In this document: in pieces, positions 2 through 16,575 of the stretch
Position numbering within the stretch: the stretch's first letter is position 1
How the letters are laid out: each line of letters starts with the position of its first letter
Assembly (NCBI GenBank): GCA_035288405.1
Contig: DATEAK010000007.1
Location: forward strand, 1-17,417
DNA length: 17,417 bases
Direction of reading: 5' to 3'
DNA from: JACPSX01 sp035288405 [NCBI: bacterium]
GTDB taxonomy: Bacteria; JACPSX01
Translations under genes and position numbers: made by a program
Notes under the pieces: model-generated
Told to the model about the DNA's origin: nothing
Databases searched by the model: none
The model's input: only the letters and a program-made list of their open reading frames with translations

Positions 2-1207
2 GTGGTTATTGACAAGGACATAGATGCCTGGAAGGTGATCCCCATGATCTCCCACACCAAGAGAGATCCCGGGCGCACACTGGGCGGCGGGAATACGCTG
101 GTGACGGGCAAATATTTTTGGGGCGGGACACACATCAGTTACAACCGCATGAACTTCCGCGGACCCAATTTCTCCAGCTTCCAGATTTCTCCGGGTTCCC
201 ACACAGATATGATTGCTACGGAGTGGTACCGCAAGGAGCCGATCCCCATGACGATCAATATGGGGGTGCCCCCCGCCTGCACGCTGATGGCGGGAGCGGG
301 TTTCGTTTATATGATCCTGCACAAGGGTTCTGATGAGCTGGGCGTGGCGGGAGCCATGCAGGGTTCTCCCATCGAGATCGTCAAGGCCCGCACCGTGGAT
401 GCCTACTCCATCGCTCAGGCTGAGTATGTTATCGAGGGGTATCTGGATACGACTCAGAAAGTCTGGGAGAGCGAGGAAGCCGAGAGGACCGGAAAACAGG
501 GAGTCTATCCGTTCCATCCGGAATGGTCCGGATACATGGGTAAGGCCTACCGGACTTACAAGTTCGTGGTGACTGCCATCACTCACAGGGCCGAGAAGCC
601 GATTTATTACCCGCTCGTCGTGCACGGGTTCGACGATCATTACATCGACGTCATGATGCGGGAAGCCTGCTTCCTCGAGCTTGCCGATCGGATCAGCCCC
701 GGTCTCTGTGTGGATACCCACATTCCCATGTCCATGACCGATTGGGGCGGAGCGATCTTCCAGATCAACAAGCGGCGCCAGCGCGACGAAGGCTTGCAGC
801 GCAACATTCTCTCCGCGGCTCTTTCCTCTTCCTTGGGAATGAGAATGGCGATCGCAGTCGATACGGACATCGACATCTACAATGTGGAAGATGTCATGTG
901 GGCGCTGGTAACCCGCACGACTCCCTACCATATCCAGCCGGTTTGCCAGGGTGGATTCGGTCAGACCTTCCAGCCCGCCGAGAGAAGCTCGGCTGGAGAT
1001 CGGGACTGGACTCAGACGAACATCCGCTTTTCGGGCGGGATGGCGGTCGACGCCACGGTCCCGTTCCAGTACCGGGAGGCGTTTCAGAGACCCCCGTACC
1101 CGATCGAGGTGGCGGATCTAAGCAGGTGGTTCAGCAAGCAGCAGATTGAAAAGGCCAAAGAGGGGATGACGGAATACGGCAAGTATCTGGCCCAGACGGG
1201 ATTCTAG
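2..1207 (+). CDS. UbiD-family decarboxylase, divergent, 5' end cut by the window edge (possible aroyl-CoA/phthaloyl-CoA decarboxylase type)
   Basis: The last 401 codons of a UbiD-fold decarboxylase; roughly 100 N-terminal residues lie outside the window, so the true start is not visible. UbiD enzymes use prenylated FMN for reversible non-oxidative decarboxylation of aromatic or unsaturated acids. Against the two canonical UbiDs further right, the catalytic Arg is R49 of the fragment (in SYNRM), and the metal ligands align as H44 (Asn in canonical enzymes), H67 and E112. The canonical EGPFGE catalytic motif is replaced by VYPFHPEWSGYMG: the second Glu is kept (E174) but the first is gone. This points to a separate subfamily rather than a ring-hydroxybenzoate decarboxylase. 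Two CaiB-type CoA-transferase genes and ubiX follow, the combination known for phthaloyl-CoA decarboxylase. Family is secure; substrate is inference. A terminator follows the stop by 24 bases. Confidence 0.85.
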   Translation: MVIDKDIDAWKVIPMISHTKRDPGRTLGGGNTLVTGKYFWGGTHISYNRMNFRGPNFSSFQISPGSHTDMIATEWYRKEPIPMTINMGVPPACTLMAGAGFVYMILHKGSDELGVAGAMQGSPIEIVKARTVDAYSIAQAEYVIEGYLDTTQKVWESEEAERTGKQGVYPFHPEWSGYMGKAYRTYKFVVTAITHRAEKPIYYPLVVHGFDDHYIDVMMREACFLELADRISPGLCVDTHIPMSMTDWGGAIFQINKRRQRDEGLQRNILSAALSSSLGMRMAIAVDTDIDIYNVEDVMWALVTRTTPYHIQPVCQGGFGQTFQPAERSSAGDRDWTQTNIRFSGGMAVDATVPFQYREAFQRPPYPIEVADLSRWFSKQQIEKAKEGMTEYGKYLAQTGF

Positions 1208-1231: not shown

Positions 1232-1263
1232 AGAGGCAGGGAACAATCCCTGCCTCTCGTTTT
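1232..1263 (+). terminator. Rho-independent terminator after the first UbiD gene
   Basis: An 11-bp perfect inverted repeat (AGAGGCAGGGA at 1232-1242, complement at 1247-1257) with an ACAA loop, followed two bases later by TTTT at 1260-1263. It lies 24 bases after the UbiD stop and 55 bases before the CoA-transferase start. It should end or attenuate transcription between these two genes. Confidence 0.85.
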
Positions 1264-1318
1264 GTGTCGGTGTTCCGAGTGCAGGCAGGATAGATTCAGG
1301 CGGAGGGAGAGCCGGGCG

Positions 1319-2587
1319 ATGGATAAGGTTTCGAAGCAGCCTGAGGGAATCTTAGCTCCTTATCGGGTTCTCGATCTGACCGACGATCTCGGTTTTCTGT
1401 GTGGAAAAATTCTGGGGGATATGGGGGCCGATGTTATTAAGGTGGAACCCCCCGGAGGCGATCCTTCCCGGAATATTGGCCCGTTTGTGGACGGTGTCCT
1501 CGATCCGGAAAAGAGTCTCTACTGGTTTGCGTACAACACCAGCAAGCGCGGGATCACCCTCAACCTTACCGAGAGAACAGGTCAGGAACTCTTCAAACGT
1601 CTGGCCAGGAAGGCTGATTTCGTCATTGAATCTTTTCCTCCGGGGACAGTGGAGAGTTGGGGGCTTGGTTACGAGACTCTGAAGCGGGAAAACCCTCGGA
1701 TCCTCCTTACCTCCGTCACATTTTTTGGTCAAACGGGACCCTATAGCCGTTATAAAGCTTCCGACATCGAAATTATGGCCACGTCGGGAGCCATGTCGCT
1801 GTCCGGCGAGAGAAACGGGCCGCCTCTCAGGATTTCATTCCCCCAGTCTGCGATGTGGACCGGCATGCACGCGGCGGCGGGGACGCTTCTGGCTCATTAC
1901 GAGCGCGAGCTGAGTGGCGAGGGCCAACACGTGGATGTGTCGGCTCAGGCAAGCACCCTTTCCTCCTTGGCTCACGCTCCTGCCTGTTGGGATTTGAACC
2001 GGGATGACCCACACCGGGAAGGCATCCTGATGACGGGGCGCAGTATTACAGGGGCCGTGATGCAAGTGTTCTGGCCGTGCCAGGATGGATACATTAATTT
2101 TATTGTCTATGGGGGCCCGGCCGGCCGCAAGACGAACCTGGAGCTCGTGAAGTGGATGGACAGCAAAGGGATGGCTCCCGCCTATCTCAAAGAGATTGAT
2201 TGGGACAAGTTCGACATTTCCACAGCGACGCAGGAGCAAATCGACGCCATCGAGAAACCCGCCGGGGAATTCCTTAAAACATTAACCAAAGCCGAGTACT
2301 TCGCCGGCGTCGTGGAGAGAGGCATGCTCGGATACCCGGTCCAGAACCCGGAAGATATCTTCAACGATCCCCAACTGGAGGCCAGGAACTTTTGGGTGAG
2401 CCTGCCTCATCCTGAGCTGGGGCGAGAGATTCCCTATCCTGGTGCGGCGGCCCTTTTCTCGCAGGGGAGTTGCACTCCCCGCTGCAGGGCCCCGCTGATC
2501 GGGGAGCACAATCGCGAGATCTATGAAGGGGAGTTGGGTCTCAGTCACGAGGAACTGACGATTCTCAAGCAAGCGGGCGTCATTTGA
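1319..2587 (+). CDS. CaiB/BaiF (class III) CoA-transferase, subunit lacking the catalytic Asp
   Basis: A 422-residue class III CoA-transferase. Family features include the N-terminal GDMGADVIKVE segment (residues 33-43), NTSKRGITLNL (73-83), and the GEGQHVDVS segment after the active-site helix. Members move CoA between acids through an aspartyl-CoA thioester. Aligned to the formyl-CoA transferase active-site segment (DSNTGMH), this protein reads AMWTGMH, so the catalytic Asp is Ala178 (codon GCG at 1850-1852). It is therefore probably the non-catalytic partner of the next gene, 27 bases downstream, as in the two-subunit enzymes for benzylsuccinate and phthalate. I chose ATG 1319, preceded by GGAGGGAG at 1302-1309; a longer frame starting at 1262 would begin inside the terminator tail. 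Substrate (phthalate or another aromatic acid) is inferred from context. Confidence 0.9.
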   Translation: MDKVSKQPEGILAPYRVLDLTDDLGFLCGKILGDMGADVIKVEPPGGDPSRNIGPFVDGVLDPEKSLYWFAYNTSKRGITLNLTERTGQELFKRLARKADFVIESFPPGTVESWGLGYETLKRENPRILLTSVTFFGQTGPYSRYKASDIEIMATSGAMSLSGERNGPPLRISFPQSAMWTGMHAAAGTLLAHYERELSGEGQHVDVSAQASTLSSLAHAPACWDLNRDDPHREGILMTGRSITGAVMQVFWPCQDGYINFIVYGGPAGRKTNLELVKWMDSKGMAPAYLKEIDWDKFDISTATQEQIDAIEKPAGEFLKTLTKAEYFAGVVERGMLGYPVQNPEDIFNDPQLEARNFWVSLPHPELGREIPYPGAAALFSQGSCTPRCRAPLIGEHNREIYEGELGLSHEELTILKQAGVI

Positions 2588-2614: not shown

Positions 2615-3832
2615 ATGGCAAAGCGGGCCCTGGAAGGAATCAAGGTGGTGGAGTTTGCCGCCTTTGCGGCGGGACCCGGGATCGGCAAGCACCTGGCTGA
2701 TCATGGCGCCCAGGTGATCCGAGTCGAGTCCAGGAGCCGCCCCGATGGATTTCGAACTCATTATCCTCCCTTCAAGGACAACAAACCGGGGCTGAACCGG
2801 TCGGGCTGCTTCTCTTTCTTCAACAATAACAAATACAGCGTAACCATCAATCTCAAGGTCCCGGGGGCAGTGGAGCTGGCTAAGCGCTTGGTGGCGCGAG
2901 CGGATATCGTCATTGAAAACATGACCCCGGGCACGATCGGACGCTTGGGACTGGGATATCAGGAGCTGATCAAGGTGAAACCCGACCTGATCATGCTCAG
3001 TACTTGCAATCAAGGGCAAACCGGGCCTCACGCTTCCCATCCCGGCTTCGGATCCCACCTTTCTTCATTGAGCGGATTTAGTCACTTTACGGGGTATCCG
3101 GGAAAAACCCCGCTGCTGCTTTATGGCCCCTACATTGATTTTATCGGTGAAGGATATGGGTTAATCTGTATTCTTGCGGCCCTGGACTATCGCAGACGTA
3201 CCGGGAAAGGCACCTTCATCGACTGCGCTCAGTACGAGAACGGCGTCCAGTTTCTCATTCCTGCCATGCTCCACTTTACAGTAAACGGCAAAATCATGGA
3301 ACGCATGGGCAACCGCCATCCAGCGGCGGCCCCCTGTGGTGCCTTCCCTTGCCAGGGGGATGACCAATGGTGTGCCTTGAGTGTGTTTGCAGACGGCGAA
3401 TGGCAGGCCTTGCGTAAGGTTATGGGGAATCCCTCCTGGGCCCTGGATCCCAAATTTGACACGGTCCTGGGTCGCAAGAAGCATGAGGACGAACTGGAGG
3501 AAAAGATCGCCGGATGGACCCGGCTTTTGACGCGGGAGGATCTCATGGAGAACCTCCAAAACGTCGGGATTCGGGCGGGCATCGTAAATACCATGGGGGG
3601 ACTGTTCAGCGATTTGCAGCTTGATCATCGCAAGTTCTGGCGCGGCATCAACCATGCGGAGATGGGCTGGCACCATTATAAGACGGGGTCGTTTTTCCTC
3701 ACGAAAACTCCCCCAGAGGTGACCATGCCGGCACCTTGTTTGGGGGAGCACAACCGTTACGTGTTCCTTGAAGTTCTGGGGATGGCCGAAACAGAGTTCG
3801 AGGAACTGGTCTCACGGGGCGTTGTCGAATAA
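2615..3832 (+). CDS. CaiB/BaiF (class III) CoA-transferase, catalytic subunit
   Basis: A 405-residue class III CoA-transferase, homologous to the preceding gene. It carries LADHGAQVIRVES (27-39), NNKYSVTINL (71-80) and the active-site segment PYIDFIGEG, in which Asp175 (codon 3137-3139) aligns with the catalytic Asp that forms the aspartyl-CoA thioester. The C-terminal part has the CaiB small-domain pattern ending in PAPCLGEHNRYV. GAAAGAGG at 2597-2604 precedes ATG 2615. Together with the upstream Asp-less paralogue it probably forms a heteromeric succinyl-CoA (or other CoA donor):aromatic acid CoA-transferase, cytoplasmic, supplying the CoA thioester for the UbiD-type decarboxylase. Donor and acceptor cannot be read from the sequence. 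Benzylsuccinate-type or carnitine-type CoA-transferase is the alternative, made less likely by the UbiD/UbiX neighbours. Confidence 0.92.
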   Translation: MAKRALEGIKVVEFAAFAAGPGIGKHLADHGAQVIRVESRSRPDGFRTHYPPFKDNKPGLNRSGCFSFFNNNKYSVTINLKVPGAVELAKRLVARADIVIENMTPGTIGRLGLGYQELIKVKPDLIMLSTCNQGQTGPHASHPGFGSHLSSLSGFSHFTGYPGKTPLLLYGPYIDFIGEGYGLICILAALDYRRRTGKGTFIDCAQYENGVQFLIPAMLHFTVNGKIMERMGNRHPAAAPCGAFPCQGDDQWCALSVFADGEWQALRKVMGNPSWALDPKFDTVLGRKKHEDELEEKIAGWTRLLTREDLMENLQNVGIRAGIVNTMGGLFSDLQLDHRKFWRGINHAEMGWHHYKTGSFFLTKTPPEVTMPAPCLGEHNRYVFLEVLGMAETEFEELVSRGVVE

Positions 3833-3925: not shown

Positions 3926-4534
3926 ATGATGCCAGAAGGGTCGGAGCAAAAGAGCCGTGTTCGTAGGTTGACGGTGGCCATCTCCGGGGCTTCCGGGGCG
4001 ATTTACGGAGTGCGGCTTCTGGAGGCCCTGCAGGGTACCGATATCGAAACCCACCTGCTGTTATCGAAGCCCGGAGAGCGCACGGTGGTGGAGGAGACGG
4101 GCTATCGGCTGGATCGGGTGAAAGCCATGGCTACTGTGGTTCACAACATCCACGATATCGGGGCAAGCATCGCCAGCGGTTCCTATAAAACCATGGGAAT
4201 GGTCATTGCGCCCTGTTCCATCCATACTCTCTCCGCGATTACCTACGGCATTACGGATAACCTGATGACCCGGGCCGCCGATGTGGTTCTCAAGGAGCAC
4301 CGGAAGCTGGTCTTGCTGGTGCGCGAGACACCACTCCACGTTGGACACCTTCGTACTATGCTAGCCGCAGCCGAAATGGGAGCCATTATCCTCCCCCCGG
4401 TACCGGCGTTTTACAGTTTGCCGAAGACCCTTACAGATATGATTAATCACACGGTTGGAAGGGTCTTGGATCATTACGATATCGATCACCGCCTGGTGAA
4501 TCGTTGGGGGGAAGAAAAACCTGAAGAGCCCTAG
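3926..4534 (+). CDS. ubiX: UbiX flavin prenyltransferase
   Basis: A 202-residue UbiX/Pad1 family protein that joins a dimethylallyl group from DMAP to reduced FMN to make prenyl-FMN, the cofactor of UbiD enzymes. Visible family motifs are GASGAIYG (21-28), the SK..E segment (47-56), ASGSYKTMGMVIAPCS (83-98), RAADVVLKEHRK (116-127), RETPL (133-137) and PAFYSLP (160-166). K123, R133, E134, Y163 and R179 fall at the spacing of the DMAP-phosphate-binding residues of Pseudomonas UbiX (recalled as K129, R139, E140, Y169, R185), so the enzyme looks active. The full usual length is present plus a short charged N-terminus. AAGAAGG precedes the double ATG at 3926/3929; either could be used. It would serve all three UbiD genes in the window. 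Confidence 0.96.
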   Translation: MMPEGSEQKSRVRRLTVAISGASGAIYGVRLLEALQGTDIETHLLLSKPGERTVVEETGYRLDRVKAMATVVHNIHDIGASIASGSYKTMGMVIAPCSIHTLSAITYGITDNLMTRAADVVLKEHRKLVLLVRETPLHVGHLRTMLAAAEMGAIILPPVPAFYSLPKTLTDMINHTVGRVLDHYDIDHRLVNRWGEEKPEEP

Positions 4535-4731: not shown

Positions 4732-5577
4732 ATGGCGGATGAGACCAAAGAAGAGGTATTGCTCGACATCTCCGTCAAGGATGCGTCGGGGCTCTACAAG
4801 TTTTACCTGAACAACGAGCGGCTCATCATCGGGGTTGTTGGGGTATTCCTGTTCCTGTTCATTTGGGAATACGTGGGGGCCATTGGAGAGCTCGTCAACC
4901 CGATCTTTATGAGCGCCCCCTCGCGCATCATTAAAGCGGGCTATGCGATGTTCGCCTCCGGGGAGATTTATAATGACCTGCGGGTAAGCGGATTGGAGCT
5001 GGCTTACGGCTTCGGGCTTGCCATCGTGACGGCGATTCCCCTAGGCTTGGCGGCGGGCTGGTACCGGCGCCTGAACTATGCGGTGGACCCCTTTCTGGAT
5101 GCGCTCAATGCGACCCCCCGGGTGGCGCTGCTGCCCTTGATCATCATCTGGGTGGGCATTGGGATCATGTCCAAGGTGGTCATCGTCTACCTGGGGGCGT
5201 TTTTCCCTATCATCATCAACACGCTGGCCGGGGTGAGAACGACGGATGTTCGCCTTCTGAAGGCGGCCCGCAGTTTTAAGTCGAACGATGCGCAGATTTT
5301 CAAGACCGTGATTTTGCCCAGCACGGTGCCCTTTATCATGTCGGGATTGCGGCAGGGACTGGGGAGAGCGTTGGTGGGCGTCGTGGTGGGAGAGTTGTAC
5401 GCGGCGACGGCGGGCATTGGGTTCATGATCACGGTGGCGGGGGCCACTTTCCAGACGGACAAAGTCTTCGTAGGAGTGATTATCGTTGCCGCCGCCGGGG
5501 TGGCGCTCACCAAGATTATCGCCGCCTTTGAGCGCCGCTTCGACAAGTGGCGGCCCGGTTTTGAGGGTGTGCAGTAA
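4732..5577 (+). CDS. ABC transporter permease, TauC/SsuC type
   Basis: A 281-residue inner-membrane permease of the nitrate/sulfonate/taurine importer group (BPD_transp_1 domain). A hydrophilic N-terminus of about 30 residues precedes a first membrane helix (31-50). Further hydrophobic segments lie near 87-108, 131-168, 211-230 and 245-266. The cytoplasmic EAA loop that docks on the ATPase is seen as KAARSFKSNDAQIF (177-190) followed by VILPSTVPFIMSGLR. A strong GGGAGG site precedes ATG 4732. The ATPase gene follows 75 bases later and the two form an importer. Its position between ubiX and the UbiD genes suggests an aromatic carboxylate or related anion as substrate, which is inference. No periplasmic binding protein is in the window. 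The 197-base gap before the gene shows no convincing promoter. Confidence 0.93.
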   Translation: MADETKEEVLLDISVKDASGLYKFYLNNERLIIGVVGVFLFLFIWEYVGAIGELVNPIFMSAPSRIIKAGYAMFASGEIYNDLRVSGLELAYGFGLAIVTAIPLGLAAGWYRRLNYAVDPFLDALNATPRVALLPLIIIWVGIGIMSKVVIVYLGAFFPIIINTLAGVRTTDVRLLKAARSFKSNDAQIFKTVILPSTVPFIMSGLRQGLGRALVGVVVGELYAATAGIGFMITVAGATFQTDKVFVGVIIVAAAGVALTKIIAAFERRFDKWRPGFEGVQ

Positions 5578-5652: not shown

Positions 5653-6462
5653 ATGGCCCAAGCAAAACTACAGGCAGTAGGGGTTAGTCTGGAGTATTAC
5701 CAGCCTCGAACCGGAGGCAGGCTCTTGGCTCTGGACTCGGTCAATCTGTCGGTCCATGAGGGAGAATTCGTCAGCATCGTAGGACCGAGCGGCTGCGGGA
5801 AAACGACCTTCCTGAATATCGTCGATGGGTTGCTCGGTGCCACGGCCGGCAAAATTTATCTGAACGGAAAGGAAATTAACAGGCCTGACGTGGACCGGGC
5901 CGTGGTCTTCCAGGATGCGTCCCTATTGCCTTGGAGGACGGTGTTTAAGAACGTGATGTACGGTCTGGAATGCCAGGGACGCAACGACGAAGCCGGGGAA
6001 AAACGGGGCAAGGAGTTTATCCGGCTGGTAGGTCTTGGCGGGTTCGAGCACCACTTTCCCCACGAGCTTTCCGGGGGCATGCAGCAAAGGGTGAACTTGG
6101 CCCGGGCCCTGACCGTGGATCCGGAGATCCTGCTGATGGATGAACCGTTTGCCGCCCTGGATGCCCAGACTCGGGAGATGATGCAGGCTGAGCTGCTGCG
6201 AATCTGGGGGGAAACCAGAAAGACGGTGCTCTTCATCACTCACCAGATCAACGAAGCGGTCTTTCTCTCGGACCGGGTGATTGTGTTCAAGTCTCGACCG
6301 GGCAAGGTCAAGGAAACCGTGAAGGTTGACTTGCCCCGACCCCGTACCCTGCACTTAAAAAGGGATCGAGCCTTTCTGGATCTGGAAGACCAGGTCTGGA
6401 CACTGATCGAGGACGAGGTGAAGCGCACCATGGCGGCCGATCAGGTCGTTCACACCTTGTAG
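5653..6462 (+). CDS. ABC transporter ATP-binding protein, TauB/SsuB type
   Basis: A 269-residue nucleotide-binding subunit of the nitrate/sulfonate/taurine family. All ABC motifs are present and intact: Walker A GPSGCGKTT (44-52), Q-loop Gln87 in VVFQDASLLPW, signature LSGGMQQR (139-146), Walker B ILLMDE (159-164), D-loop AALD, and the switch histidine H197 in ITHQINEAV. It powers the permease encoded 75 bases upstream, on the cytoplasmic face of the membrane. The length and the C-terminal PRPRTLHLKRD segment are typical of this family. Start ATG 5653 follows a GAGAGGGAAAT site. Substrate is not determinable; context favours an aromatic acid. Confidence 0.95.
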   Translation: MAQAKLQAVGVSLEYYQPRTGGRLLALDSVNLSVHEGEFVSIVGPSGCGKTTFLNIVDGLLGATAGKIYLNGKEINRPDVDRAVVFQDASLLPWRTVFKNVMYGLECQGRNDEAGEKRGKEFIRLVGLGGFEHHFPHELSGGMQQRVNLARALTVDPEILLMDEPFAALDAQTREMMQAELLRIWGETRKTVLFITHQINEAVFLSDRVIVFKSRPGKVKETVKVDLPRPRTLHLKRDRAFLDLEDQVWTLIEDEVKRTMAADQVVHTL

Positions 6463-6551: not shown

Positions 6552-7982
6552 ATGGGATCATACAAAGACCTTAGAGAGTGGCTCCAAAGGGTTCAGGAGT
6601 TCGGCGAACTGAAGGTCATTGAGGGTGCCCATTGGAACCTGGAGATGGGTACGATCTCCGAAATCATCTGCCAGGAGAAATCTCCGGTGCCGGCGATCCT
6701 CTTCGACCGGATAGTGGATTATTCCCCTGGATACCGGGTTCTCTTCGGACAGAATGCTTCCTTTAAGCGCATGGCCCTGAACCTCGGACTTCCTGTGGAC
6801 TTGACCAGCATGGCGCTGGTGACGGCGTTGCGGCGCAAGCTGGCCGAGATGAAACCGATTCCACCGCGCTTCGTATCGTCCGGTCCCGTGTGTGAGAATG
6901 TCTTGACCGGCGATCGTGTGGATCTTCTGAAATTTCCCGTCCCTTTCATGCATGAGTTGGACGGAGGACGTTACATCGGTACTGCCTGTCTGGTGATCAC
7001 CCGGGATCCCGACGAAGGGTGGGTGAATTTCGGCACCTATCGAGGGATGGTCCACGACAAAAACTCGATGGCGCTTTATATCTCTCCGGGGAAACATGGT
7101 CGCATGCAGCGGGATAAATATTTTGCCCGAAACGAACCCTGCCCGGTGGTAATTTGTGTCGGCCAGGACCCTCTTCTTTTCATGTCCGCGGGCAACGAGT
7201 CCGATTACGGACTTTCCGAATACGACTTCAGTGGAGGCCTGAAAGGGGAGCCCATCGAAGTCTTCGAGGGCCGGGAGACGGGTTTGCCGATTCCAGCCCA
7301 AGCCGAGATCGTCATCGAGGGGTTCATGGAACCCGGTGATGTGAAGGCCGAAGGACCCTTCGGAGAATGGACCGGCTACTATGCCAGCTCTACCAGGCCT
7401 GAGCCGGTGGTGCGGGTGAAGACGATTTATCACCGCAACGACCCGATCTTGTGCTGCGCCCGTCCGGGCCGGCCGCCTTCCGACTACTCGATTGCCAAGT
7501 GCCTGGTCAAATCGGCGCTGATTTGGGATCAGGTGGAGCGGGCCGGGATACCGAATGTTCGTGGCGTTTGGTGCCACGAGGCCGGGGGAGGGCGACTCCT
7601 CAATATCATCTCCATTGAGCAGGCATATCCAGGGCACGCCCGCCAGGCAGCTCTGGTGGCCTCTCAGGTTCACGCCGGAGCGTATCTGGGGCGGTATGTG
7701 ATCGTGGTCGATGAGGACATCGACCCGGCCGATACGTTTGACGTGTTGTGGGCCATCTCCACGCGCAGTGATCCGGAGACTTCCATCGACATTTTGCGGC
7801 GGTGCTGGAGCGGGCCGTTGGATCCTATATTCCCCAAAGGGAAAAAGGGCTTCAACTCGCGGGCGATCATCGATGCTTGCAGGCCTTACGAGTGGCGGCA
7901 GGATTTTCCGCCCGTGGCCGAATCGTCCCCGGAAGTTAGATCGCAGGTTTTGGAGAAATGGCGAAAGGTAATTTTCGAGTAG
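6552..7982 (+). CDS. UbiD-family decarboxylase, canonical active site (first paralogue)
   Basis: A full-length 476-residue UbiD-family (de)carboxylase dependent on prenyl-FMN. The catalytic triad is visible: R164 in GTYRGMV, and E267 and E272 in EGPFGEWTGYY, equivalent to R173, E277 and E282 of Aspergillus Fdc1. Probable metal ligands are N159, H182 and E223. The C-terminal half has the family segments RAGIPNVRGVWCHEAGGGR and DEDIDPADTFDVLWA. It is clearly paralogous to the UbiD at 8508-9932, sharing long identical stretches such as LDPI.PK...KGFNSRAIID. AGGAAGGGG precedes ATG 6552. The stop overlaps the presumed Shine-Dalgarno of the riboflavin-kinase-like gene 7 bases downstream, implying one transcript. 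Likely acts on an aromatic carboxylate; which one cannot be read. Confidence 0.95.
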   Translation: MGSYKDLREWLQRVQEFGELKVIEGAHWNLEMGTISEIICQEKSPVPAILFDRIVDYSPGYRVLFGQNASFKRMALNLGLPVDLTSMALVTALRRKLAEMKPIPPRFVSSGPVCENVLTGDRVDLLKFPVPFMHELDGGRYIGTACLVITRDPDEGWVNFGTYRGMVHDKNSMALYISPGKHGRMQRDKYFARNEPCPVVICVGQDPLLFMSAGNESDYGLSEYDFSGGLKGEPIEVFEGRETGLPIPAQAEIVIEGFMEPGDVKAEGPFGEWTGYYASSTRPEPVVRVKTIYHRNDPILCCARPGRPPSDYSIAKCLVKSALIWDQVERAGIPNVRGVWCHEAGGGRLLNIISIEQAYPGHARQAALVASQVHAGAYLGRYVIVVDEDIDPADTFDVLWAISTRSDPETSIDILRRCWSGPLDPIFPKGKKGFNSRAIIDACRPYEWRQDFPPVAESSPEVRSQVLEKWRKVIFE

Positions 7983-7989: not shown

Positions 7990-8442
7990 TTGGTCGTGAG
8001 CCGGCTGGTCATTACAGGTCAGGTCCTCTCCGGTTTGGGAAGAGGGGGCGGCTTTGTCGCCCTGGAATGGGTGCGCCGGGAAATCCTGCAGAAGTTCGGT
8101 TTCGAGCCTTACCCGGGTACGCTGAACCTCAAGGTTCTAGATTTTCAGAGCCGCAAGAATCTGGAACTCGCCCGGTCCCTGAGTCCCATTACAATTGAGT
8201 CCCCGACCGCCGATTTTTGCAGTGCTCCCGGAGTCCGAGCCAGCGTGGAAGGGATGCCGGCGGCGCTCATCTTTCCTGAAGCCACGGTTCACGAGGAGGT
8301 TATCGTGGAAGTGGTGGCAGCGCTCCATATCCGCAGTGCCCTGAGCTTGCAGGATGGGGACCTGGTTCATATCGAGACCGAAATTGGCGGGTCAAACCCG
8401 GGTTCCGAGAAGACAAATTCCGTTGACTTTCAAAAGGGCTGA
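7990..8442 (+). CDS. CTP-dependent riboflavin kinase-like protein (DUF120/RibK family)
   Basis: A 150-residue protein matching the archaeal RibK family, which phosphorylates riboflavin to FMN with CTP. Diagnostic segments are GQVLSGLGRGGGF (10-22, nucleotide-binding glycine-rich region), GFEPYPGTLNLKV (37-49, with the Thr/Asn pair that binds Mg), the segment AALIFPEATVHEEVIVEVVA (91-110), and the barrel end LQDGDLVHIE. The length is near that of Methanocaldococcus MJ0056 (about 136 residues) plus a polar C-terminal tail. Bacteria normally make FMN with the unrelated ATP-dependent RibF. The gene sits between two UbiD genes, 7 bases after one and 65 before the other, so it could feed FMN to UbiX. 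The start is TTG 7990 (AGGA at 7981-7984) or GTG 7996; this is uncertain. Kinase activity is inferred; a flavin- or CTP-binding role without catalysis is possible. Confidence 0.82.
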   Translation: MVVSRLVITGQVLSGLGRGGGFVALEWVRREILQKFGFEPYPGTLNLKVLDFQSRKNLELARSLSPITIESPTADFCSAPGVRASVEGMPAALIFPEATVHEEVIVEVVAALHIRSALSLQDGDLVHIETEIGGSNPGSEKTNSVDFQKG

Positions 8443-8495: not shown

Positions 8496-8503
8496 AAGGA
8501 GGT
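8496..8503 (+). promoter_or_regulatory. Ribosome binding site fixing the start of the second paralogous UbiD
   Basis: A perfect AAGGAGGT lies four bases before ATG 8508. This sets the start there, twelve codons inside a longer open frame that begins at 8472. The protein from 8508 also begins in register with the paralogue at 6552. Confidence 0.85.
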
Positions 8504-8507: not shown

Positions 8508-9932
8508 ATGGCGTTCACGGATTTGCGGGATTTTATCGAAAAGGCTAAGGCAATCGGAGAACTGCGGGTTGTCGAAGGCGCCGATTGGAATCTGGAGATC
8601 GGCGTCCTCACCGAACTGGCCTGTCATCATGAAAGCCGGCCTGCGATTCTTTTTGACAAGATCAAGGGATACCCCGAGGGGTACCAGGTGCTGGCTAACT
8701 CCCTGGGATCCCTCAAGCGGACCGCCCTCACACTGGATCTGCCCGATAACCTCGGCGCCATGGACTTCATCAGAGCCTGGCGCGAGAAGTCAAAGTCCCT
8801 CAAGATGATCCCGCCGCGTGTGGTAAAGACCGGACCTCTGATGGAAAACGTTTACAGCGGCAAAGAGATCAACATGCTCAAGTTTCCAACCCCCTTGTGG
8901 CATGAGCATGATGGAGGGCGTTATCTCGGCACCGGCAGCATCGACATTACCCGTGATCCGGACGAGGGGTGGGTGAATCTTGGTACGTACCGGGTCATGG
9001 TCCACAACGAAGATACGTTGGGGTTTTATATTTCTCCCGGAAAGCATGGCAGGATTCAGAGAGAGAAGTACTTCAACCGTAATGAGTCCTGCAAGGTAGC
9101 CGTGTCCTTCGGGCACGACCCTCGCTACTTCCTGGCCGGAAGCATTGAGCTCGATTACGGCCTCTCCGAATACGATTTCATTGGGGCATTGAAAGGCTCC
9201 CCCGTGGACGTGATCGATGGGGATTATTCCGGACTACCGATTCCCGCGGATGCTGAGATTGTCATCGAAGGAGAAGCCTTGGCATCGGAACTGATGGCAG
9301 AAGGACCCTTCGGTGAATGGACCGGCTATTACGCCAGTTCCACGCGCCCCGAACCGATCATCAAGGTGAAGCGTCTCTACCATCGCAACAACCCCATCAT
9401 CCTGGGTTCACCTCCCATGAGGCCCCCCTCTGAGTTGACCGCATACCGGTCCTACATGCGCTCGGCGCTGATCTGGGAAGAGATGGAGCGCGCCGGGATT
9501 CCCGATGTGAAGGGCGTGTGGTGCCATGAAGCTGGAGGAACTCGTCTTCTGGTCATTGTTTCGATCCAGCAGCGCTATCCGGGGCATGCCAAGCAGGCAG
9601 GGGTTGTCGCTTCCCAGTGCCACGCAGGCGCTTACCTGGGACGCTATGTGATCGTGGTTGATGAGGACATTGATCCCAGCAACACGTACGACGTTCTCTG
9701 GGCAATGTCTACCCGCTCGGATCCGGAGAAGGACATCGATATTTTGCGGCGCTGCTGGAGCGGTCCCCTGGATCCCATAATCCCCAAAGCGTTGAAGGGC
9801 TTCAACTCGCGGGCCATCATCGACGCCACTCGTCCGTTTGAATGGAAAGATGAATTCCCAAGGGTCGCGGAGTCGAGCCCGGAGTTGAGGGAAAAAGTTC
9901 GCAAAAAGTGGGAGAAGGTCCTGTTCGGTTAG
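8508..9932 (+). CDS. UbiD-family decarboxylase, canonical active site (second paralogue)
   Basis: A 474-residue UbiD-family prenyl-FMN (de)carboxylase, full length. The catalytic residues are R162 in GTYRVMV and E265/E270 in EGPFGEWTGYY; the probable metal ligands are N157, H180 and E221. It resembles the gene at 6552-7982 along its whole length, with differences concentrated in the N-terminal domain (for example SLGSLKRTALTLDLPDN) and in residues near 199-235 that could shape the substrate pocket. The pair may be isoenzymes with different substrates or subunits of a mixed oligomer. The gene probably belongs to the transcript that includes the first paralogue and the riboflavin-kinase-like gene. 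Its stop TAG shares four bases (TTAG, 9929-9932) with the stop of the convergent flavin-binding gene. Substrate unknown. Confidence 0.95.
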   Translation: MAFTDLRDFIEKAKAIGELRVVEGADWNLEIGVLTELACHHESRPAILFDKIKGYPEGYQVLANSLGSLKRTALTLDLPDNLGAMDFIRAWREKSKSLKMIPPRVVKTGPLMENVYSGKEINMLKFPTPLWHEHDGGRYLGTGSIDITRDPDEGWVNLGTYRVMVHNEDTLGFYISPGKHGRIQREKYFNRNESCKVAVSFGHDPRYFLAGSIELDYGLSEYDFIGALKGSPVDVIDGDYSGLPIPADAEIVIEGEALASELMAEGPFGEWTGYYASSTRPEPIIKVKRLYHRNNPIILGSPPMRPPSELTAYRSYMRSALIWEEMERAGIPDVKGVWCHEAGGTRLLVIVSIQQRYPGHAKQAGVVASQCHAGAYLGRYVIVVDEDIDPSNTYDVLWAMSTRSDPEKDIDILRRCWSGPLDPIIPKALKGFNSRAIIDATRPFEWKDEFPRVAESSPELREKVRKKWEKVLFG

Positions 9933-10417
9933 TACGGTTCCAGGATGAGCAGTTCCCGGTGGCCAAACCCCTGGGAATTGTCGATGAACCAAATGCGCGC
10001 CGGGACAATCCGGTAAAAACGCACATTGCCCACCTTGCGGGCCGTCTCGGAGTCCAGACCTGTTTTAGCCACAAGGAATCGTGCGGCAAAGGGGAATTTC
10101 TTCAAATAGAGGGCCAGAACCCCGGCTTCCTTGAGCTTTCCCTGCACCAGAGTGGCTTCTCCCTCGATCTGTAATCCTTTGATCTCTTTCCAGTTGTCTG
10201 GATCCTCGTTGATGGTGGCCGCCACGGCCGGCGAGGTCCGTAAGTTGTTTCCGTGCCGGGAGGATGGGTCTGAGACAAAGTAGAGGGTGAAGCGGGAATT
10301 CACATAGAAGAGAGCAGCCGCTTGGGGAGCATTGCTCCCCTGTGTAGCAAGAGAAAGGGTGTTATGGGTGGCGAGATAATGTAGAATATTTTTTTGTAAC
10401 GTCTTCGTATTATCCAT
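9929..10417 (-). CDS. Pyridoxamine 5'-phosphate oxidase-family FMN-binding split-barrel protein
   Basis: A 162-residue protein of the PNPOx-like FMN-binding split-barrel group. Visible family traits are the opening helix followed by TLSLATQGSNAPQAAALFYV (20-39), the strand LYFVSDPSSRHGNNL with the usual S..SRH..NL pattern, AVAATINED, and KGLQIEGEATLV. The C-terminal half (FYRIVPARIWFIDNS) resembles the general-stress and YhbP-like small members, which bind FMN or F420 and reduce or sense small molecules. It is not a true PdxH by length or motif. It is the only minus-strand gene among the catabolic genes, convergent with the UbiD gene and overlapping it by four bases. No strong ribosome binding site precedes ATG 10417. 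Cofactor and substrate cannot be read; a flavin cofactor would fit the flavin theme of the locus. Confidence 0.82.
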   Translation of the reverse strand: MDNTKTLQKNILHYLATHNTLSLATQGSNAPQAAALFYVNSRFTLYFVSDPSSRHGNNLRTSPAVAATINEDPDNWKEIKGLQIEGEATLVQGKLKEAGVLALYLKKFPFAARFLVAKTGLDSETARKVGNVRFYRIVPARIWFIDNSQGFGHRELLILEPY

Positions 10418-13074: not shown

Positions 13075-13608
13075 ATGGTTGAACTTGAAAAGCTCCGCGA
13101 GGCGGAACCAGAAGCCCACCGCATGGCCGGCTACGAGGACCTGTTTACTATGTGGCAGAATTGCCAGGCTCGGGCCCGGGAAGGGAAGGTAGTGATCAAG
13201 TCCAGCGAGCGCGGCTGGGAGGAAGCACGGCAAGGGGTCCTGAAGTGGTTTATCCACCCGATGGCACCGGATTGTAATACGAGCCACTGGTACGTATTCC
13301 TGCATGATATCCGTACCCACTCGGGGCGGCACCGCCACCAGGGAGGGCTCGTCATCTTCGTGGTTGAGGGGAAGGGGTACACGATCGTGGACGGCAAACG
13401 GATCGATTGGGAGGAAGGGGATCTTATTTTGCTGCCGATCAAGCCCCAAGGGGTTGAGCACCAGCATTTTAACCGGGAGCCGGGCAAGCCCTGCAAGTGG
13501 CTGGCGTTTATCAATGAACCGTTCATCGAGGCTCTGGGCGCTGAAATGCAGCAGGTGGAGACCTCCCCGGATTGGCGCAAGCGGGAGGAAGGTCACGAGC
13601 ACGCCTAA
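13075..13608 (+). CDS. Single-domain cupin with an intact three-histidine metal site
   Basis: A 177-residue protein with a cupin beta-barrel in its middle. Cupin motif 1 reads GRHRHQGGLVIFVVEGKGY (84-102) and motif 2 GDLILLPIKPQGVEHQHFN (115-133). H86, H88 and H129 would form a three-histidine metal site, with no glutamate ligand in motif 1, as in gentisate dioxygenase-like cupins. The protein is about half the length of gentisate 1,2-dioxygenase and lacks its second barrel, so I do not call it that. A conserved N-terminal helix (LFTMWQNCQARAREGK) precedes the barrel. A strong AAGGAGG precedes ATG 13075. It is paralogous to the next gene, 23 bases downstream. Function unknown; binding or conversion of an aromatic acid is a guess from its place after the benzoate-CoA ligase. 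Confidence 0.85.
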   Translation: MVELEKLREAEPEAHRMAGYEDLFTMWQNCQARAREGKVVIKSSERGWEEARQGVLKWFIHPMAPDCNTSHWYVFLHDIRTHSGRHRHQGGLVIFVVEGKGYTIVDGKRIDWEEGDLILLPIKPQGVEHQHFNREPGKPCKWLAFINEPFIEALGAEMQQVETSPDWRKREEGHEHA

Positions 13609-13631
13609 GTTAGGATAGAGGAGAAAAGCGG

Positions 13632-14306
13632 ATGCCCCCCAAGACCAAGTCGAAAAAGAAACCCTTGCCGCGCCGGCCTCACAAGAAGGCTGCGCGCGCA
13701 GCCCGCCGTGGAGGGTCCAAGGCGACTCCCAAGAAAACTGCACGTGCATCTGTGAAACGTGCGGCGACCAGCCGTAAGAGCGCTCCTCCCGCCAAACGGG
13801 GAGTTTTGAAAAAGGCTCCGGTTAAAAAACTCGATCGCTTGGAGGAACTCTTCGCGCAGAGGGACCAGTGGCGCGGACTTCTCCGGAAGGCGATTTCTCT
13901 GGTAGAAGGGAAAAAGCTCAAGTGGGAGATCAACCGCCAGGGCAAGATGCGCTGGTACCTTCACCCCAACATCACGAACACTTCGCTGCGCTCTCTGTTG
14001 GTTTTCATGCAGGAGATCCCCCCCGGGAGTCGCAGTGGAAAGCAGAAGCATCAAGGCGGCATCGTGCATTTCGTTCTAAAGGGGAGGGGGTACACCGTCG
14101 TTAATGGGAAGCGTCACGACTGGGAAGCCGGTGACACGATCAGCCTTCCGGTTTTCCCGGATGGGATCGAGTACCAGCATTTCAACTCCGATCCCGGTGC
14201 CCCGGTTGTGTTTATTGCTGCGCAGGCAAGCCTTGGAGATCCTCTGGGAGTTGATATGGGATCGGGCTTGGAACAGATCGAGAATTGCCCCGAATACAAA
14301 GGCTAG
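13632..14306 (+). CDS. Cupin with a lysine/arginine-rich histone H1-like N-terminal tail and a degenerate metal site
   Basis: A 224-residue protein in two parts. Residues 1-66 are a basic, Ala/Pro-rich, probably disordered tail with 26 Lys or Arg and no Asp or Glu, resembling bacterial histone H1-like tails. Residues 67-224 are a cupin paralogous to the preceding gene, sharing the pattern G.GYT.V.GKR.DWE.GD and the QHFN element. The metal ligands have changed: Q138 replaces the first His, H140 is kept, and Y181 replaces the third His, so canonical metal binding is unlikely. The tail suggests contact with DNA, RNA or another polyanion. GAGGAG at about 13618-13623 precedes ATG 13632. Function unknown; a DNA-associated ligand sensor for aromatic acids is one possibility. 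The tail is in frame with the cupin with no sign of a frameshift. Confidence 0.85.
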   Translation: MPPKTKSKKKPLPRRPHKKAARAARRGGSKATPKKTARASVKRAATSRKSAPPAKRGVLKKAPVKKLDRLEELFAQRDQWRGLLRKAISLVEGKKLKWEINRQGKMRWYLHPNITNTSLRSLLVFMQEIPPGSRSGKQKHQGGIVHFVLKGRGYTVVNGKRHDWEAGDTISLPVFPDGIEYQHFNSDPGAPVVFIAAQASLGDPLGVDMGSGLEQIENCPEYKG

Positions 14307-14421: not shown

Positions 14422-16575
14422 TTAACTCTCTTCCGAACCAGAGCCTTCGTAAAAGCGGTGGGAGGCTCTCACTCGTTTGAGAGCCGCTTCGAAGTGGGAC
14501 AGGTCCAAAGGCAGAGTGTGAGCAAAGTCTACCTGTCTCAAAGCGGCGAGCTTCGCTTCCTGACAAATTGCCTGCAGCTCCGCCCCACAAAATCCTGAAG
14601 TCTGCTCGGCCACAGTACGGATGATCGACTGTGCGGATAACCCGGCCTTGAGCGGAACCCCACGCAGATAGATCCGGAGGATTTGCTCCCGCTCCCCGCA
14701 ATCCGGCAGAGGCACGTGGATGTGGATCCCGAAACGGCCGGACCTCAAGATTGCCGGATCGAGGAGATCGATACGGTTGGTGGCCGCCAACACGGTAATT
14801 GAGATCAATGGTTCAATCCCGTCCAATTCCGCCAGGATCTGATTGACGACTCTCTCACTGGCCCTGCTCCCGCTGCTGGCGCTACGGACCGGGGCCAGAG
14901 CATCGATCTGGTCGAAAAAGATGACCGCCGGGGCTACCTGCCGAGCGACCCGGAAAATATGGCGGATTCCCTCTTCCGATTCACCCAACCACTTGCTGAA
15001 GATCTCGGTTCCCTTGACGGAAAGGAAATTGGCCTGAGCTTCGCTGGCCAGCGCCTGGGCGAGAAGAGTCTTGCCGGCGCCCGGGGGTCCGTAAAGCAGG
15101 ATGCCTGTTGGTGGCTTCAGATTCATGTCCCGAAAGACATCGGGATGTAGCATCGGCTGCTCTACGATTTCCCGGAGCTGGCGCTTGACCTCTTCCAGCC
15201 CTCCGATGTCCTCCCAACGAATTTCCGGAACCGTGGCCAGGGTTTCGCGGAGAGCCGAGGGCCTCATCCGGGAGAGGGAGAATCGCAGGTCCTGAGGCTC
15301 CACAATAAGACGGTCAAGGGCTACCGAGAGTTTGCTGTGGCCGTTCCATTGCGCTCCCAGTTGGCGGCGCATGGCGTTTAATCCCGCTTCCCGGCACAGC
15401 TCCATGAGGTCGGCCCCCACATAGCCGTGGGTGCGGATCGAGAGTTCTTCCAGAGAGGCCACGGCCTCGGGCGAGAGCGGCATTCCCCTGGTGTGGATAC
15501 GCAGGATTTGCAGCCTGCCAACTTGATCGGGAGGCCCCATGTAAATTTCCCGGTCGAAGCGGCCGGGGCGCCTCACTGCCGGATCCAGGGAATCGATACG
15601 ATTTGTCGTCCCTACGACCAAAATCCCTTCCACTTTCTTGAGGCCGTCCATGAGTTCCAAAAACTGGGTGGCCATGCGGGTATCGGCTTGGGTGCCGGAC
15701 TCCCCTCTTTTGGGGGCGATGATGTCCAGTTCATCAATGAAGATAATGGAGGGGAGATGATGGGAAGCCTCATTGAAGATTTTTCGTAAGTTGGCTTCGG
15801 TCTCTCCATAAGTGGAGCTGACAATGTCAGGCCCGTTGATGTAGAGGAATTGGGCCGCCAACTCGTTGGCGATTGCCCGGGCCAGGTGGGTTTTGCCGGA
15901 ACCCGGCGGACCGTAAAAGATAATCCCGCGTGGAGGGGAAATGCCCAGTTTGCGAAAGATATCGGGAAACCGCAAAGGGATTTCGACGAGCTCGCGCACC
16001 TGGCGGATCTGAGTTGACATTCCTCCAACGTCCTCGAAAGTGACTTCCGTGGTCATCCCCGGCCAGACGTTAAAAATATATTTGAGCTCCACTGCGGTTT
16101 TTGGAGTAATGAGACCAGGGCCTGGAGAGAGATCCATGACTTTGAACGCGGAGCCGCTGTGGGCTCCTGGTACAGTGGCGTAGAGGATGGCTCCGGGCGT
16201 CGCCATTAAACCCCGGGCGGCGAAATTTTCAGCCAGGAATCGACCCAGATTTTCCACCTGAGACAGATCCAGAAAGGGCGCCAGGACGATCCTCTCCACG
16301 GGAGAAACCTCCGCAAGTTCCATCTCGACTTGGTCCCCAATCAGCGCTTTGATGGACTGCCGCAGGTACTGATCGATCCTTATAGTGCCGAGCCCGCGAT
16401 CTTGGGCTAGAGGGGGGCCCACCCGGGCAAGGACACGCTTTCGAAACTGGTTGCTGATCTCGATGATTTGTTTGGTCCGGATCCCATGTTTCTTCATGAC
16501 TTGGGGATCCAAGAGAGCCAGACCTCGAGCCGTATGTTGCTCGGGGCATGATTCCACTTGCAGCATAATTCCCAT
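14422..16575 (-). CDS. CDC48/VAT-type double AAA+ ATPase, second Walker B changed to Gln
   Basis: A 717-residue homologue of p97/CDC48/VAT, hexameric unfoldases that thread proteins through a central pore. An N-domain (about 1-150, with GLGTIRIDQYLRQSIKALIGD) precedes D1 and D2. D1 is complete: Walker A GPPGSGKT (222-229), Walker B IIFIDE with E282, sensor N325, and arginine fingers R336 and R339. D2 has Walker A GPPGAGKT (496-503), pore residues KWLGESE, sensor N600, and arginines R611 and R614. Its Walker B reads VIFFDQ: the hydrolytic glutamate is Q556 (codon CAG, minus strand 14910-14908). D2 should bind but hydrolyse ATP poorly. I chose ATG 16575, preceded by AGGAG; the longer frame from 16620 begins next to the promoter -10. 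No link to the catabolic genes is evident beyond proximity. Confidence 0.94.
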   Translation of the reverse strand: MGIMLQVESCPEQHTARGLALLDPQVMKKHGIRTKQIIEISNQFRKRVLARVGPPLAQDRGLGTIRIDQYLRQSIKALIGDQVEMELAEVSPVERIVLAPFLDLSQVENLGRFLAENFAARGLMATPGAILYATVPGAHSGSAFKVMDLSPGPGLITPKTAVELKYIFNVWPGMTTEVTFEDVGGMSTQIRQVRELVEIPLRFPDIFRKLGISPPRGIIFYGPPGSGKTHLARAIANELAAQFLYINGPDIVSSTYGETEANLRKIFNEASHHLPSIIFIDELDIIAPKRGESGTQADTRMATQFLELMDGLKKVEGILVVGTTNRIDSLDPAVRRPGRFDREIYMGPPDQVGRLQILRIHTRGMPLSPEAVASLEELSIRTHGYVGADLMELCREAGLNAMRRQLGAQWNGHSKLSVALDRLIVEPQDLRFSLSRMRPSALRETLATVPEIRWEDIGGLEEVKRQLREIVEQPMLHPDVFRDMNLKPPTGILLYGPPGAGKTLLAQALASEAQANFLSVKGTEIFSKWLGESEEGIRHIFRVARQVAPAVIFFDQIDALAPVRSASSGSRASERVVNQILAELDGIEPLISITVLAATNRIDLLDPAILRSGRFGIHIHVPLPDCGEREQILRIYLRGVPLKAGLSAQSIIRTVAEQTSGFCGAELQAICQEAKLAALRQVDFAHTLPLDLSHFEAALKRVRASHRFYEGSGSEES

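What the first reader, a model, noticed from the sequence alone, without database searches (positions are those of the whole stretch)
7990..8442. Archaeal-type CTP-dependent riboflavin kinase homologue set between two UbiD genes
The protein carries the RibK/DUF120 signatures (SGLGRGGGF, GFEPYPGTLNLKV and the DGD segment). Archaeal RibK makes FMN from riboflavin with CTP. Here it lies in what looks like one transcript with two prenyl-FMN enzymes and downstream of ubiX. The locus would thus encode riboflavin to FMN (RibK), FMN to prenyl-FMN (UbiX), and prenyl-FMN use (UbiD): a self-contained cofactor line. That a bacterium would need a private FMN source for UbiD maturation is, to my knowledge, not a textbook arrangement. 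The protein might also act as a flavin carrier.
Basis: partly seen in the sequence, partly recalled or inferred. Interest (0 to 1): 0.82.

Follow-up and report, generated by a model that had tools for sequence, protein, structure and literature searches.

The report
Archaeal-type flavin kinase among UbiD genes
A bacterial gene cluster that probably breaks down the plasticiser acid phthalate carries a small relative of the archaeal enzyme that makes the flavin FMN, and its relatives in other bacteria often sit next to enzymes that make or use a modified FMN, which suggests a dedicated flavin supply or delivery step that can now be tested.

Summary
Window 7990-8442 (+) encodes a 150-aa PF01982/DUF120 protein (100.8 bits); its model matches MJ0056 at Z 18.4. 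The recalled Mg ligands Thr43/Asn45 and Glu107 are kept; the nucleotide loop has drifted. It lies 7 nt after one UbiD gene and before another, in a cluster with ubiX, a phthaloyl-CoA decarboxylase homologue (E 1.6e-133) and two class III CoA-transferases: probably anaerobic phthalate breakdown. The linkage is real: UbiD or UbiX lies within 8 kb in 51 of 82 bacterial relatives but 1 of 38 archaeal RibK genes; in 40 Desulfobacterota-type genomes UbiD is near in 21, against 0.97 expected. Against a sole FMN source: all 15 bacterial genomes tested also have a RibF-type flavokinase, and 21 of 47 survey loci show no UbiD or UbiX nearby. The bacterial proteins form a derived group, some fused to HAD phosphatases in either order. 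Best reading: an accessory, locus-dedicated riboflavin kinase feeding UbiX (about 0.5); main rival: a catalytically silent flavin or prFMN carrier.

The parts
7990..8442 (+). DUF120 / archaeal-type riboflavin kinase homologue (150 aa, TTG start, AGGA 5 nt upstream; no HTH domain found by Pfam)
   Evidence: Pfam PF01982 100.8 bits, the only family found; PDB hits 3cta, 2oyn, 2p3m; model pLDDT 87.9, Z 18.4 to 2vbv; sequence
6552..7982 (+). UbiD family decarboxylase A, directly upstream (7 bases between its stop and the TTG)
   Evidence: PF01977 223.2 bits; TIGR00148 287.3 bits over cut-off 244.85; best solved relative 7pda, E 3.5e-114
8508..9932 (+). UbiD family decarboxylase B, directly downstream (ORF listed from GTG 8472; ATG 8508 behind AAGGAGGT is the likelier start)
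   Evidence: PF01977 209.2 bits; TIGR00148 298.6 bits over cut-off; sequence
3926..4534 (+). UbiX flavin prenyltransferase
   Evidence: TIGR00421 234.2 bits over cut-off 108.9; PDB 6qlg (PAD1) E 5.7e-55
2..1207 (+). UbiD family member, phthaloyl-CoA decarboxylase homologue, 5' end cut by the window edge
   Evidence: phmmer to PDB 8oz5/8pmk (phthaloyl-CoA decarboxylase) E 1.6e-133
1262..2587 (+). class III CoA-transferase (candidate phthalate CoA-transferase subunit)
   Evidence: PF02515; 46% identical to a CoA-transferase beside the Aromatoleum EbN1 phthaloyl-CoA decarboxylase homologue
2615..3832 (+). class III CoA-transferase, second
   Evidence: PF02515; 47% identical to the second EbN1 CoA-transferase
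4732..5577 (+). ABC transporter permease between ubiX and ubiD
   Evidence: PF00528; 32% identical to the EbN1 cluster permease
5653..6462 (+). ABC transporter ATPase
   Evidence: PF00005; 47% identical to the EbN1 cluster ATPase
9929..10417 (-). PNPOx-like protein (a family known to bind flavin, recalled), convergent with UbiD B; a PNPOx-like gene also follows DUF120 in three Chloroflexota-type loci
   Evidence: PF01243 37.6 bits; L197, L198, L199
10548..11321 (+). enoyl-CoA hydratase family
   Evidence: PF00378 158.8 bits
11306..12919 (+). benzoate-CoA ligase family protein
   Evidence: TIGR02262 667.8 bits over cut-off 375.25
13075..14306 (+). two cupin-domain genes (13075-13608, 13632-14306)
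   Evidence: PF07883

Best explanation
The protein is a derived, bacterial member of the archaeal CTP-dependent riboflavin kinase family, recruited to loci rich in prenyl-FMN enzymes. It most likely phosphorylates riboflavin to FMN (donor CTP or another NTP, Mg at the TxN motif) close to UbiX, which adds the dimethylallyl group, so that the UbiD enzymes of anaerobic aromatic breakdown are loaded without competing for the FMN that housekeeping RibF makes and passes on to FAD (that last point is recalled and inferred). In the window it would serve a probable phthalate cluster with three UbiD-family genes. Shown: family, predicted fold, retained residues, gene order, conserved linkage, presence of RibF in relatives' genomes. 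Inferred: kinase activity, donor nucleotide, hand-over to UbiX, benefit to UbiD, the phthalate substrate.
For: Fold: Z 18.4 to 2vbv (MJ0056 with CDP and FMN) and 18.8 to 5trd_B (RbkR with CTP). Residues: T43, N45, E107 kept in 82 of 82 bacterial relatives and in the window; R115 is R in 52 and K in 26 of 82, R in the window. Keeping both recalled Mg ligands fits phosphoryl transfer better than plain flavin binding. Linkage: UbiD or UbiX within 8 kb in 51 of 82 bacterial loci, 43 of 82 within 300 nt on the same strand, against 1 of 38 archaeal RibK with the same mean flank searched, 12.7 kb a locus; UbiD near in 21 of 40 against 0.97 expected. UbiD gene number: 36 of 37 DUF120+ genomes have UbiD (median 4) against 24 of 38 without DUF120 (median 1). 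Order ubiD-ubiX-DUF120-Nudix in the annotated Azoarcus KH32C phenol operon. HAD phosphatase fusion in 15 of 132 rows resembles the plant FMN hydrolase/riboflavin kinase fusion (PMC2972280 passages).
Against: A RibF-type flavokinase domain is present in 15 of 15 bacterial relatives' genomes, so FMN is made anyway. The nucleotide loop is altered in the window (E17R, R19G, Y20G); T99, a flavin contact by recall, is T in only 6 of 82 relatives (kept in the window); Tyr27 of the archaeal enzymes (38 of 38) is Val in 79 of 82. Scores lie far below the NCBIfam RibK equivalog cut-offs. 31 of 82 loci show no UbiD or UbiX within 8 kb, some because contigs end. 19 of 35 genomes with a strong PpsB match lack DUF120, as do the two genomes with the best-scoring phthaloyl-CoA decarboxylase homologues, 73% identical. 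Archaeal paralogues of the same type show no UbiD or UbiX nearby (0 of 6).
Confidence: 0.5

Rival explanations
1. It is a catalytically silent flavin or prenyl-FMN carrier: it binds FMN or reduced prFMN in the old kinase pocket and passes it from UbiX to apo-UbiD, as LpdD does with a different fold.
For: LpdD is described as a prFMNH2-binding chaperone that activates apo-UbiD (PMC10865409, abstract and passages). RibF redundancy. Altered nucleotide loop in the window and uniform residue switches in the bacterial group (Y27 to V in 79 of 82; C73 in 82 of 82 against G in 35 of 38 archaeal). Placement directly between two UbiD genes.
Against: Both recalled Mg ligands T43 and N45 are invariant, which a plain carrier might not need. 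The fusions to HAD phosphatases point to phosphate chemistry.
Confidence: 0.28
2. It is a kinase for another alcohol of the same pathway, for example dimethylallyl alcohol to dimethylallyl phosphate (the UbiX co-substrate), or a prenylated riboflavin.
For: UbiX was shown to bind and use dimethylallyl monophosphate (PMC7662398 passages); group-specific residue changes could mean a new acceptor. A Nudix gene nearby (18 of 82 loci within 8 kb) or a fused HAD could belong to the same supply, for instance DMAPP to DMAP (inference).
Against: No direct evidence; the characterised members phosphorylate riboflavin (recalled), and Glu107, a flavin contact by recall, is invariant.
Confidence: 0.1
3. It is a small structural or regulatory subunit of the neighbouring UbiD enzymes, like VdcD of vanillate decarboxylase, with no separate flavin chemistry.
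For: UbiD operons can encode small partner proteins that are integral subunits (VdcD; PMC10865409 passage). The window gene is sandwiched between two UbiD genes.
Against: Found also without UbiD nearby and as HAD fusions; recalled catalytic residues fully conserved.
Confidence: 0.07
4. Chance neighbour or ordinary operon hitch-hiker without a role in prFMN metabolism.
For: 21 of 47 survey loci lack UbiD or UbiX within 8 kb. Many betaproteobacterial operons are near copies of one arrangement.
Against: 21 of 40 against 0.97 expected, maximum 8 in a million simulations; linkage is found in several parts of the tree.
Confidence: 0.05

Closest known systems
Archaeal CTP-dependent riboflavin kinase RibK (MJ0056) and RbkR (Thermoplasma)
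   Same: PF01982 domain, predicted fold (Z 18.4 to 2vbv, 18.8 to 5trd_B), T43/N45/E107/R115
   Different: No HTH domain (unlike RbkR); altered Gly-rich loop; derived group in the tree; genomes of its bacterial relatives also have RibF; sits among ubiD/ubiX genes
Unassigned DUF120 gene of the anaerobic phenol operon (AZKH_RS23515 of Azoarcus sp. KH32C; probably 'orf9' of Thauera aromatica, recalled, source not held)
   Same: Same family and group, next to ubiX and ubiD
   Different: 36% identity; followed by a Nudix and an AMP-binding gene; phenol rather than probable phthalate pathway
Plant FMN hydrolase/riboflavin kinase (AtFHy/RFK)
   Same: Riboflavin kinase joined to a HAD phosphatase (PMC2972280 passages), as in 15 of 132 DUF120 rows here
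   Different: The plant kinase part is a eukaryotic-type RFK, not DUF120; the window protein itself is not fused
LpdD prFMNH2 chaperone
   Same: Small partner protein encoded with a UbiD, shown to help cofactor loading (PMC10865409, abstract and passages)
   Different: Different fold (resembles Pba3/4 per the abstract); no kinase ancestry
Phthalate-type cluster of Aromatoleum aromaticum EbN1 plasmid 2
   Same: UbiX, phthaloyl-CoA decarboxylase homologue, two CoA-transferases, ABC transporter, further UbiD genes
   Different: No DUF120 among the 17 annotated features of the stretch or by tblastn of the stretch

Membership tests
PF01982 (DUF120, CTP-dep_RFKase) | Score above the Pfam gathering cut-off over the whole domain | tested here: met
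   100.8 bits against 25, profile 1-120 of 121
PF01982 (DUF120, CTP-dep_RFKase) | Fold of MJ0056/RbkR | tested here: met
   AlphaFold model pLDDT 87.9; Z 18.4, rmsd 1.9 over 127 residues to 2vbv_A; 18.8 to 5trd_B; best row outside these kinases 6.9. A predicted model, not a solved structure
Functional archaeal CTP-dependent riboflavin kinase | Mg ligands Thr43 and Asn45 and flavin contact Glu107 (MJ0056 numbering; roles recalled) | tested here: met
   Present in the window, in 82 of 82 bacterial and 38 of 38 archaeal rows
Functional archaeal CTP-dependent riboflavin kinase | CTP-binding Gly-rich loop (MJ0056 GLGEGRYF) and KLRE segment (roles recalled) | tested here: inconclusive
   Window GLGRGGGF: E17R, R19G, Y20G; HIRS in place of KLRE; R115 kept
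NCBIfam ribK equivalogs (NF040694, NF010762) | Score above the curated equivalog cut-off | tested here: not met
   71.8 of 168 and 82.1 of 279 bits; so not filed as a RibK equivalog
Functional archaeal CTP-dependent riboflavin kinase | Catalyses riboflavin + CTP to FMN + CDP | not testable with these tools
   Needs an assay
LpdD prFMNH2 chaperone | Sequence or fold of LpdD; binding of prFMNH2 | not tested
   Only the paper was consulted; no LpdD sequence or structure was compared
Anaerobic phthalate cluster (for the surroundings) | Phthaloyl-CoA decarboxylase, two class III CoA-transferases, UbiX | tested here: met
   E 1.6e-133 to 8oz5; PF02515 twice; UbiX; same set in EbN1. Substrate not tested

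The most novel reading that the evidence does not exclude
The bacterial DUF120 group is a dedicated prFMN-maturation factor rather than a housekeeping-type kinase: a former riboflavin kinase turned flavin hand-over protein or kinase of a prFMN precursor, working with UbiX and, by fusion or neighbourhood, with HAD or Nudix hydrolases, as a modular prFMN supply line of anaerobic aromatic catabolism in several phyla.
Probability: 0.35. Interest if true: 0.78.

Novelty: new variant of a known kind. Interest (0 to 1): 0.6.

Why it matters
Some UbiD enzymes, of interest for CO2 fixation and for breaking down aromatic pollutants, resist isolation in active form (PMC10865409 abstract). A flavin-kinase homologue conserved beside many of them suggests that cofactor supply or loading is a bottleneck that nature solves locally, and gives a concrete gene to co-express. 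It would also give a testable role to the DUF120 gene of the phenol operon, annotated in Azoarcus only as 'DUF120 domain-containing protein'.

Tried and rejected
Chance neighbourhood: rejected. A first genome scan with the single protein found no relative; A2 in viral contigs found none; A1 in viral contigs gave one distant DUF120 (L002). Phenol-operon link as the whole explanation: PpsB matches up to E 1e-40 (221 of 395 genomes) included many longer PEP-synthase-like proteins, so I used only genomes whose best match was 4e-95 or better (35; 16 with DUF120); that cut was chosen after seeing the list. NCBIfam and PDB searches did not fix the substrate of the Nudix or HAD partners. Neighbours scanned around loci without UbiD gave no common theme beyond HAD genes. 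Absence from fold lists was not used as evidence.

Literature, from search listings only: 'UbiD' + 'riboflavin kinase' (1 paper, on trypanosomatid symbionts), 'DUF120' (15 papers, none about this by title and start of abstract; the term also matches longer DUF numbers), 'CTP-dependent riboflavin kinase' (2), 'UbiX' + 'UbiD' + 'RibK' (0). The held library lacks most subscription journals; the 2004 phenylphosphate carboxylase paper is not held and I did not look for the MJ0056 structure paper itself.

Caveats on counts: the bacterial class was defined by a Trp near MJ0056 position 26, so that Trp being invariant in the 82 is by definition. Left out of the 82: two bacterial rows without it (L153, L200, neither with UbiD or UbiX), a row from a viral contig (L002) and the window. 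Three Thermofilaceae rows that met the Trp rule were moved by hand to the archaeal set because they carry the long archaeal form; two archaeal rows of a divergent kind (L066, one of two from L077) were left out of the 38; one gappy row of 135 was dropped. Of the 82, 35 come from similarity searches (34 from the best 80 of 283, one from the plasmid search; 25 of 35 linked) and 47 from genome surveys (26 linked); some genomes give two loci. The 38 DUF120-negative genomes were the first of the list, not a random draw. UbiD numbers of G056 and G218 are lower bounds (35 candidates scored of 60 and 63), so the expected 0.97 is slightly low. The tree used a short alignment and a quick search; the window sits on a long branch and in no starred set. 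Phylum names for the genome search groups are inferred from the named loci used as centres.

Full report
OBSERVATION. The ORF at 7990-8442 (+) encodes 150 residues from a TTG start with AGGA 5 nt upstream. Pfam assigns PF01982 (DUF120, CTP-dependent riboflavin kinase) with 100.8 bits over residues 12-129 and no other family. phmmer finds the solved archaeal riboflavin kinases 3cta, 2oyn and 2p3m. Seven bases separate the stop of UbiD A (6552-7982) from its start, and UbiD B follows; the ORF list gives GTG 8472 for B, but AAGGAGGT at 8496-8503 favours ATG 8508. ubiX is at 3926-4534.

SURROUNDINGS. The window is most likely part of an anaerobic phthalate cluster. The gene cut by the left edge (2-1207) matches solved phthaloyl-CoA decarboxylase with E 1.6e-133. 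It is followed by two class III CoA-transferases, ubiX, an ABC permease and ATPase, UbiD A, DUF120 and UbiD B. A stretch of plasmid 2 of Aromatoleum aromaticum EbN1 holds homologues of these genes except DUF120, at 32-51% identity (its UbiD aligned best to UbiD B). Phthaloyl-CoA decarboxylase as a prFMN-dependent UbiD enzyme acting after CoA activation is described in PMC8269228, which also places phthalate genes of A. aromaticum on a plasmid (passages). In a survey of 395 genomes of the phylum of a Desulfobacterales locus, six hold a homologue at E 1e-60 or better; the two best are 73% identical over the whole query, so the window may come from a Desulfobacterota-type bacterium (inference).

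FOLD AND RESIDUES. An AlphaFold model from 20 sequences has mean pLDDT 87.9. It aligns to MJ0056 with CDP and FMN (2vbv) at Z 18.4, rmsd 1.9 over 127 residues, and to RbkR with CTP (5trd_B) at Z 18.8; the best row outside these kinases is 6.9. In MJ0056 numbering T43, N45 and E107 are present in the window and in each of 82 bacterial and 38 archaeal rows; R115 is R in 52 and K in 26 of the 82 and R in the window. I recall T43 and N45 as Mg ligands, T99 and E107 as flavin contacts, and the Gly-rich loop and KLRE segment as nucleotide contacts; these roles come from no call. The window loop reads GLGRGGGF where MJ0056 has GLGEGRYF. Bacterial rows have Val for Tyr27 (79 of 82) and Cys at position 73 (82 of 82), where archaeal rows have Gly (35 of 38). 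T99 is kept in the window but is T in only 6 of the 82. So the recalled chemical core is kept while the surroundings have been remodelled.

FAMILY. In a quick tree of 133 rows the bacterial rows except L200 fall in one group of 90 (SH-aLRT 86) that also holds six standalone archaeal paralogues and the window; apart from L200 the rest of the tree is archaeal. Resolution is poor: the window sits on a long branch, in no starred set, in an SH-aLRT-91 group of 19 with Desulfobacterota- and Chloroflexota-type loci. Five of six archaeal genomes with such a paralogue also hold a second, better-scoring DUF120 gene. All 15 bacterial genomes tested hold a RibF-type flavokinase domain (one match partial) and none of the six archaeal ones does. 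The bacterial protein is therefore an addition to, not a replacement of, the housekeeping enzyme.

LINKAGE. By phmmer on six-frame ORFs, UbiD or UbiX lies within 8 kb in 51 of 82 bacterial loci, and within 300 nt on the same strand in 43 of 82; for archaeal RibK the figure is 1 of 38, for archaeal paralogues of the bacterial type 0 of 6; the mean flank searched is 12.7 kb a locus in both the 82 and the 38. Thirty-five of the 82 come from similarity searches (25 linked) and 47 from genome surveys (26 linked). In 40 genomes of the Desulfobacterota-type survey UbiD is near in 21, and UbiD or UbiX in 23, where 0.97 is expected for UbiD from gene numbers and genome sizes, with a maximum of 8 in a million simulations. 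Genomes with DUF120 carry more UbiD: 36 of 37 have any, median 4, against 24 of 38 and median 1 (the 38 were the first listed, not a random draw). DUF120 itself is uncommon: 40 of 395, 5 of 95, 8 of 301 and, over the cut-off, 5 of 248 genomes in four groups. In Azoarcus sp. KH32C it is annotated as a DUF120 protein directly after ubiX in the phenylphosphate synthase and carboxylase operon and before a Nudix gene; the same order recurs in many Rhodocyclaceae-type loci. A UbiD-UbiX-Nudix transcript was reported from a benzene-degrading consortium, with the Nudix-like protein taken for a hydroxylase candidate (PMC5852087 passage).

AGAINST THE LINKAGE. It is not obligatory. Of 35 genomes with a strong PpsB match (E 4e-95 or better), 16 have DUF120 and 19 do not; this is still an enrichment over the other 360 (24 with DUF120). 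Of six genomes with a phthaloyl-CoA decarboxylase homologue, four have DUF120 (Fisher p 0.001), but not in the fetched stretch around the decarboxylase, and the two with the best-scoring homologues have none; a third, 78% identical over 289 residues, has a DUF120 of another form elsewhere. Thirty-one of 82 loci show neither UbiD nor UbiX within 8 kb, some because contigs end.

FUSIONS. Fifteen of 132 DUF120 proteins are fused to a HAD phosphatase domain, four as HAD-DUF120 and eleven as DUF120-HAD (Pfam support for L160, L161 and L065). Some HAD parts keep the DxD motif, others have DxE or DxG. Plants carry an FMN hydrolase of the HAD type fused to a riboflavin kinase of another family (PMC2972280 passages). 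This parallel favours flavin-phosphate chemistry, but the HAD substrate is unknown.

MECHANISM. I favour an accessory riboflavin kinase that raises local FMN for UbiX, because the recalled Mg and flavin residues are invariant and the gene travels with UbiX and UbiD. The main rival is a flavin or prFMN carrier, for which LpdD is a precedent of another fold (PMC10865409, abstract and passages). FMN might also serve a UbiD-type enzyme directly: for the phenylphosphoamidate carboxylase of Desulfatiglans anilini FMN is reported to suffice (PMC7500099 passage). A kinase for dimethylallyl alcohol, a UbiD subunit and mere hitch-hiking are less likely. Sequence cannot decide between kinase and carrier; assays can.

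NOVELTY. The DUF120 family and its archaeal function are known. I found no mention of the bacterial UbiD-linked group or of its HAD fusions in the listings searched, which exclude most subscription journals; the DUF120 gene of the phenol operon is annotated without function. I rate it a new variant of a known kind.

Noticed in passing
G003 (genome of L014, Chloroflexota-type MAG): 89 UbiD-domain matches in one 6.5-Mb genome; G056 and G218 show at least 35 each and G153 26: very large UbiD expansions.
   Followed up: no
L057, L065, L076, L195 (HAD-DUF120); L160, L161, L165, L172, L175, L179, L184, L186, L187, L188, L189 (DUF120-HAD): DUF120 fused to HAD phosphatase domains in both orders; L161, L175 and L187 carry a further HAD gene next to the fusion.
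   Followed up: partly
L001:15389-15934: A Nudix hydrolase follows DUF120 in phenol operons; it might supply dimethylallyl phosphate or FMN (from FAD), substrate unknown.
   Followed up: partly
L197, L198, L199; window 9929-10417: PNPOx-like genes lie directly beside DUF120 in three Chloroflexota-type loci, and one lies convergent after UbiD B in the window.
   Followed up: no
L002:1760-2074: A divergent DUF120-like stretch lies in a viral contig, among ORFs that look to me like phage structural genes (their families were not tested).
   Followed up: no
window 14422-16620 (-): A double-AAA ATPase with a CDC48 N-terminal domain, a type better known from archaea and eukaryotes (recalled).
   Followed up: no
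L035:8704-9999 and L192:6793-7977: In two Rokubacteria-type loci DUF120 follows a class III CoA-transferase within 10 nt, without UbiD or UbiX within 8 kb (Pfam for the L035 gene).
   Followed up: no
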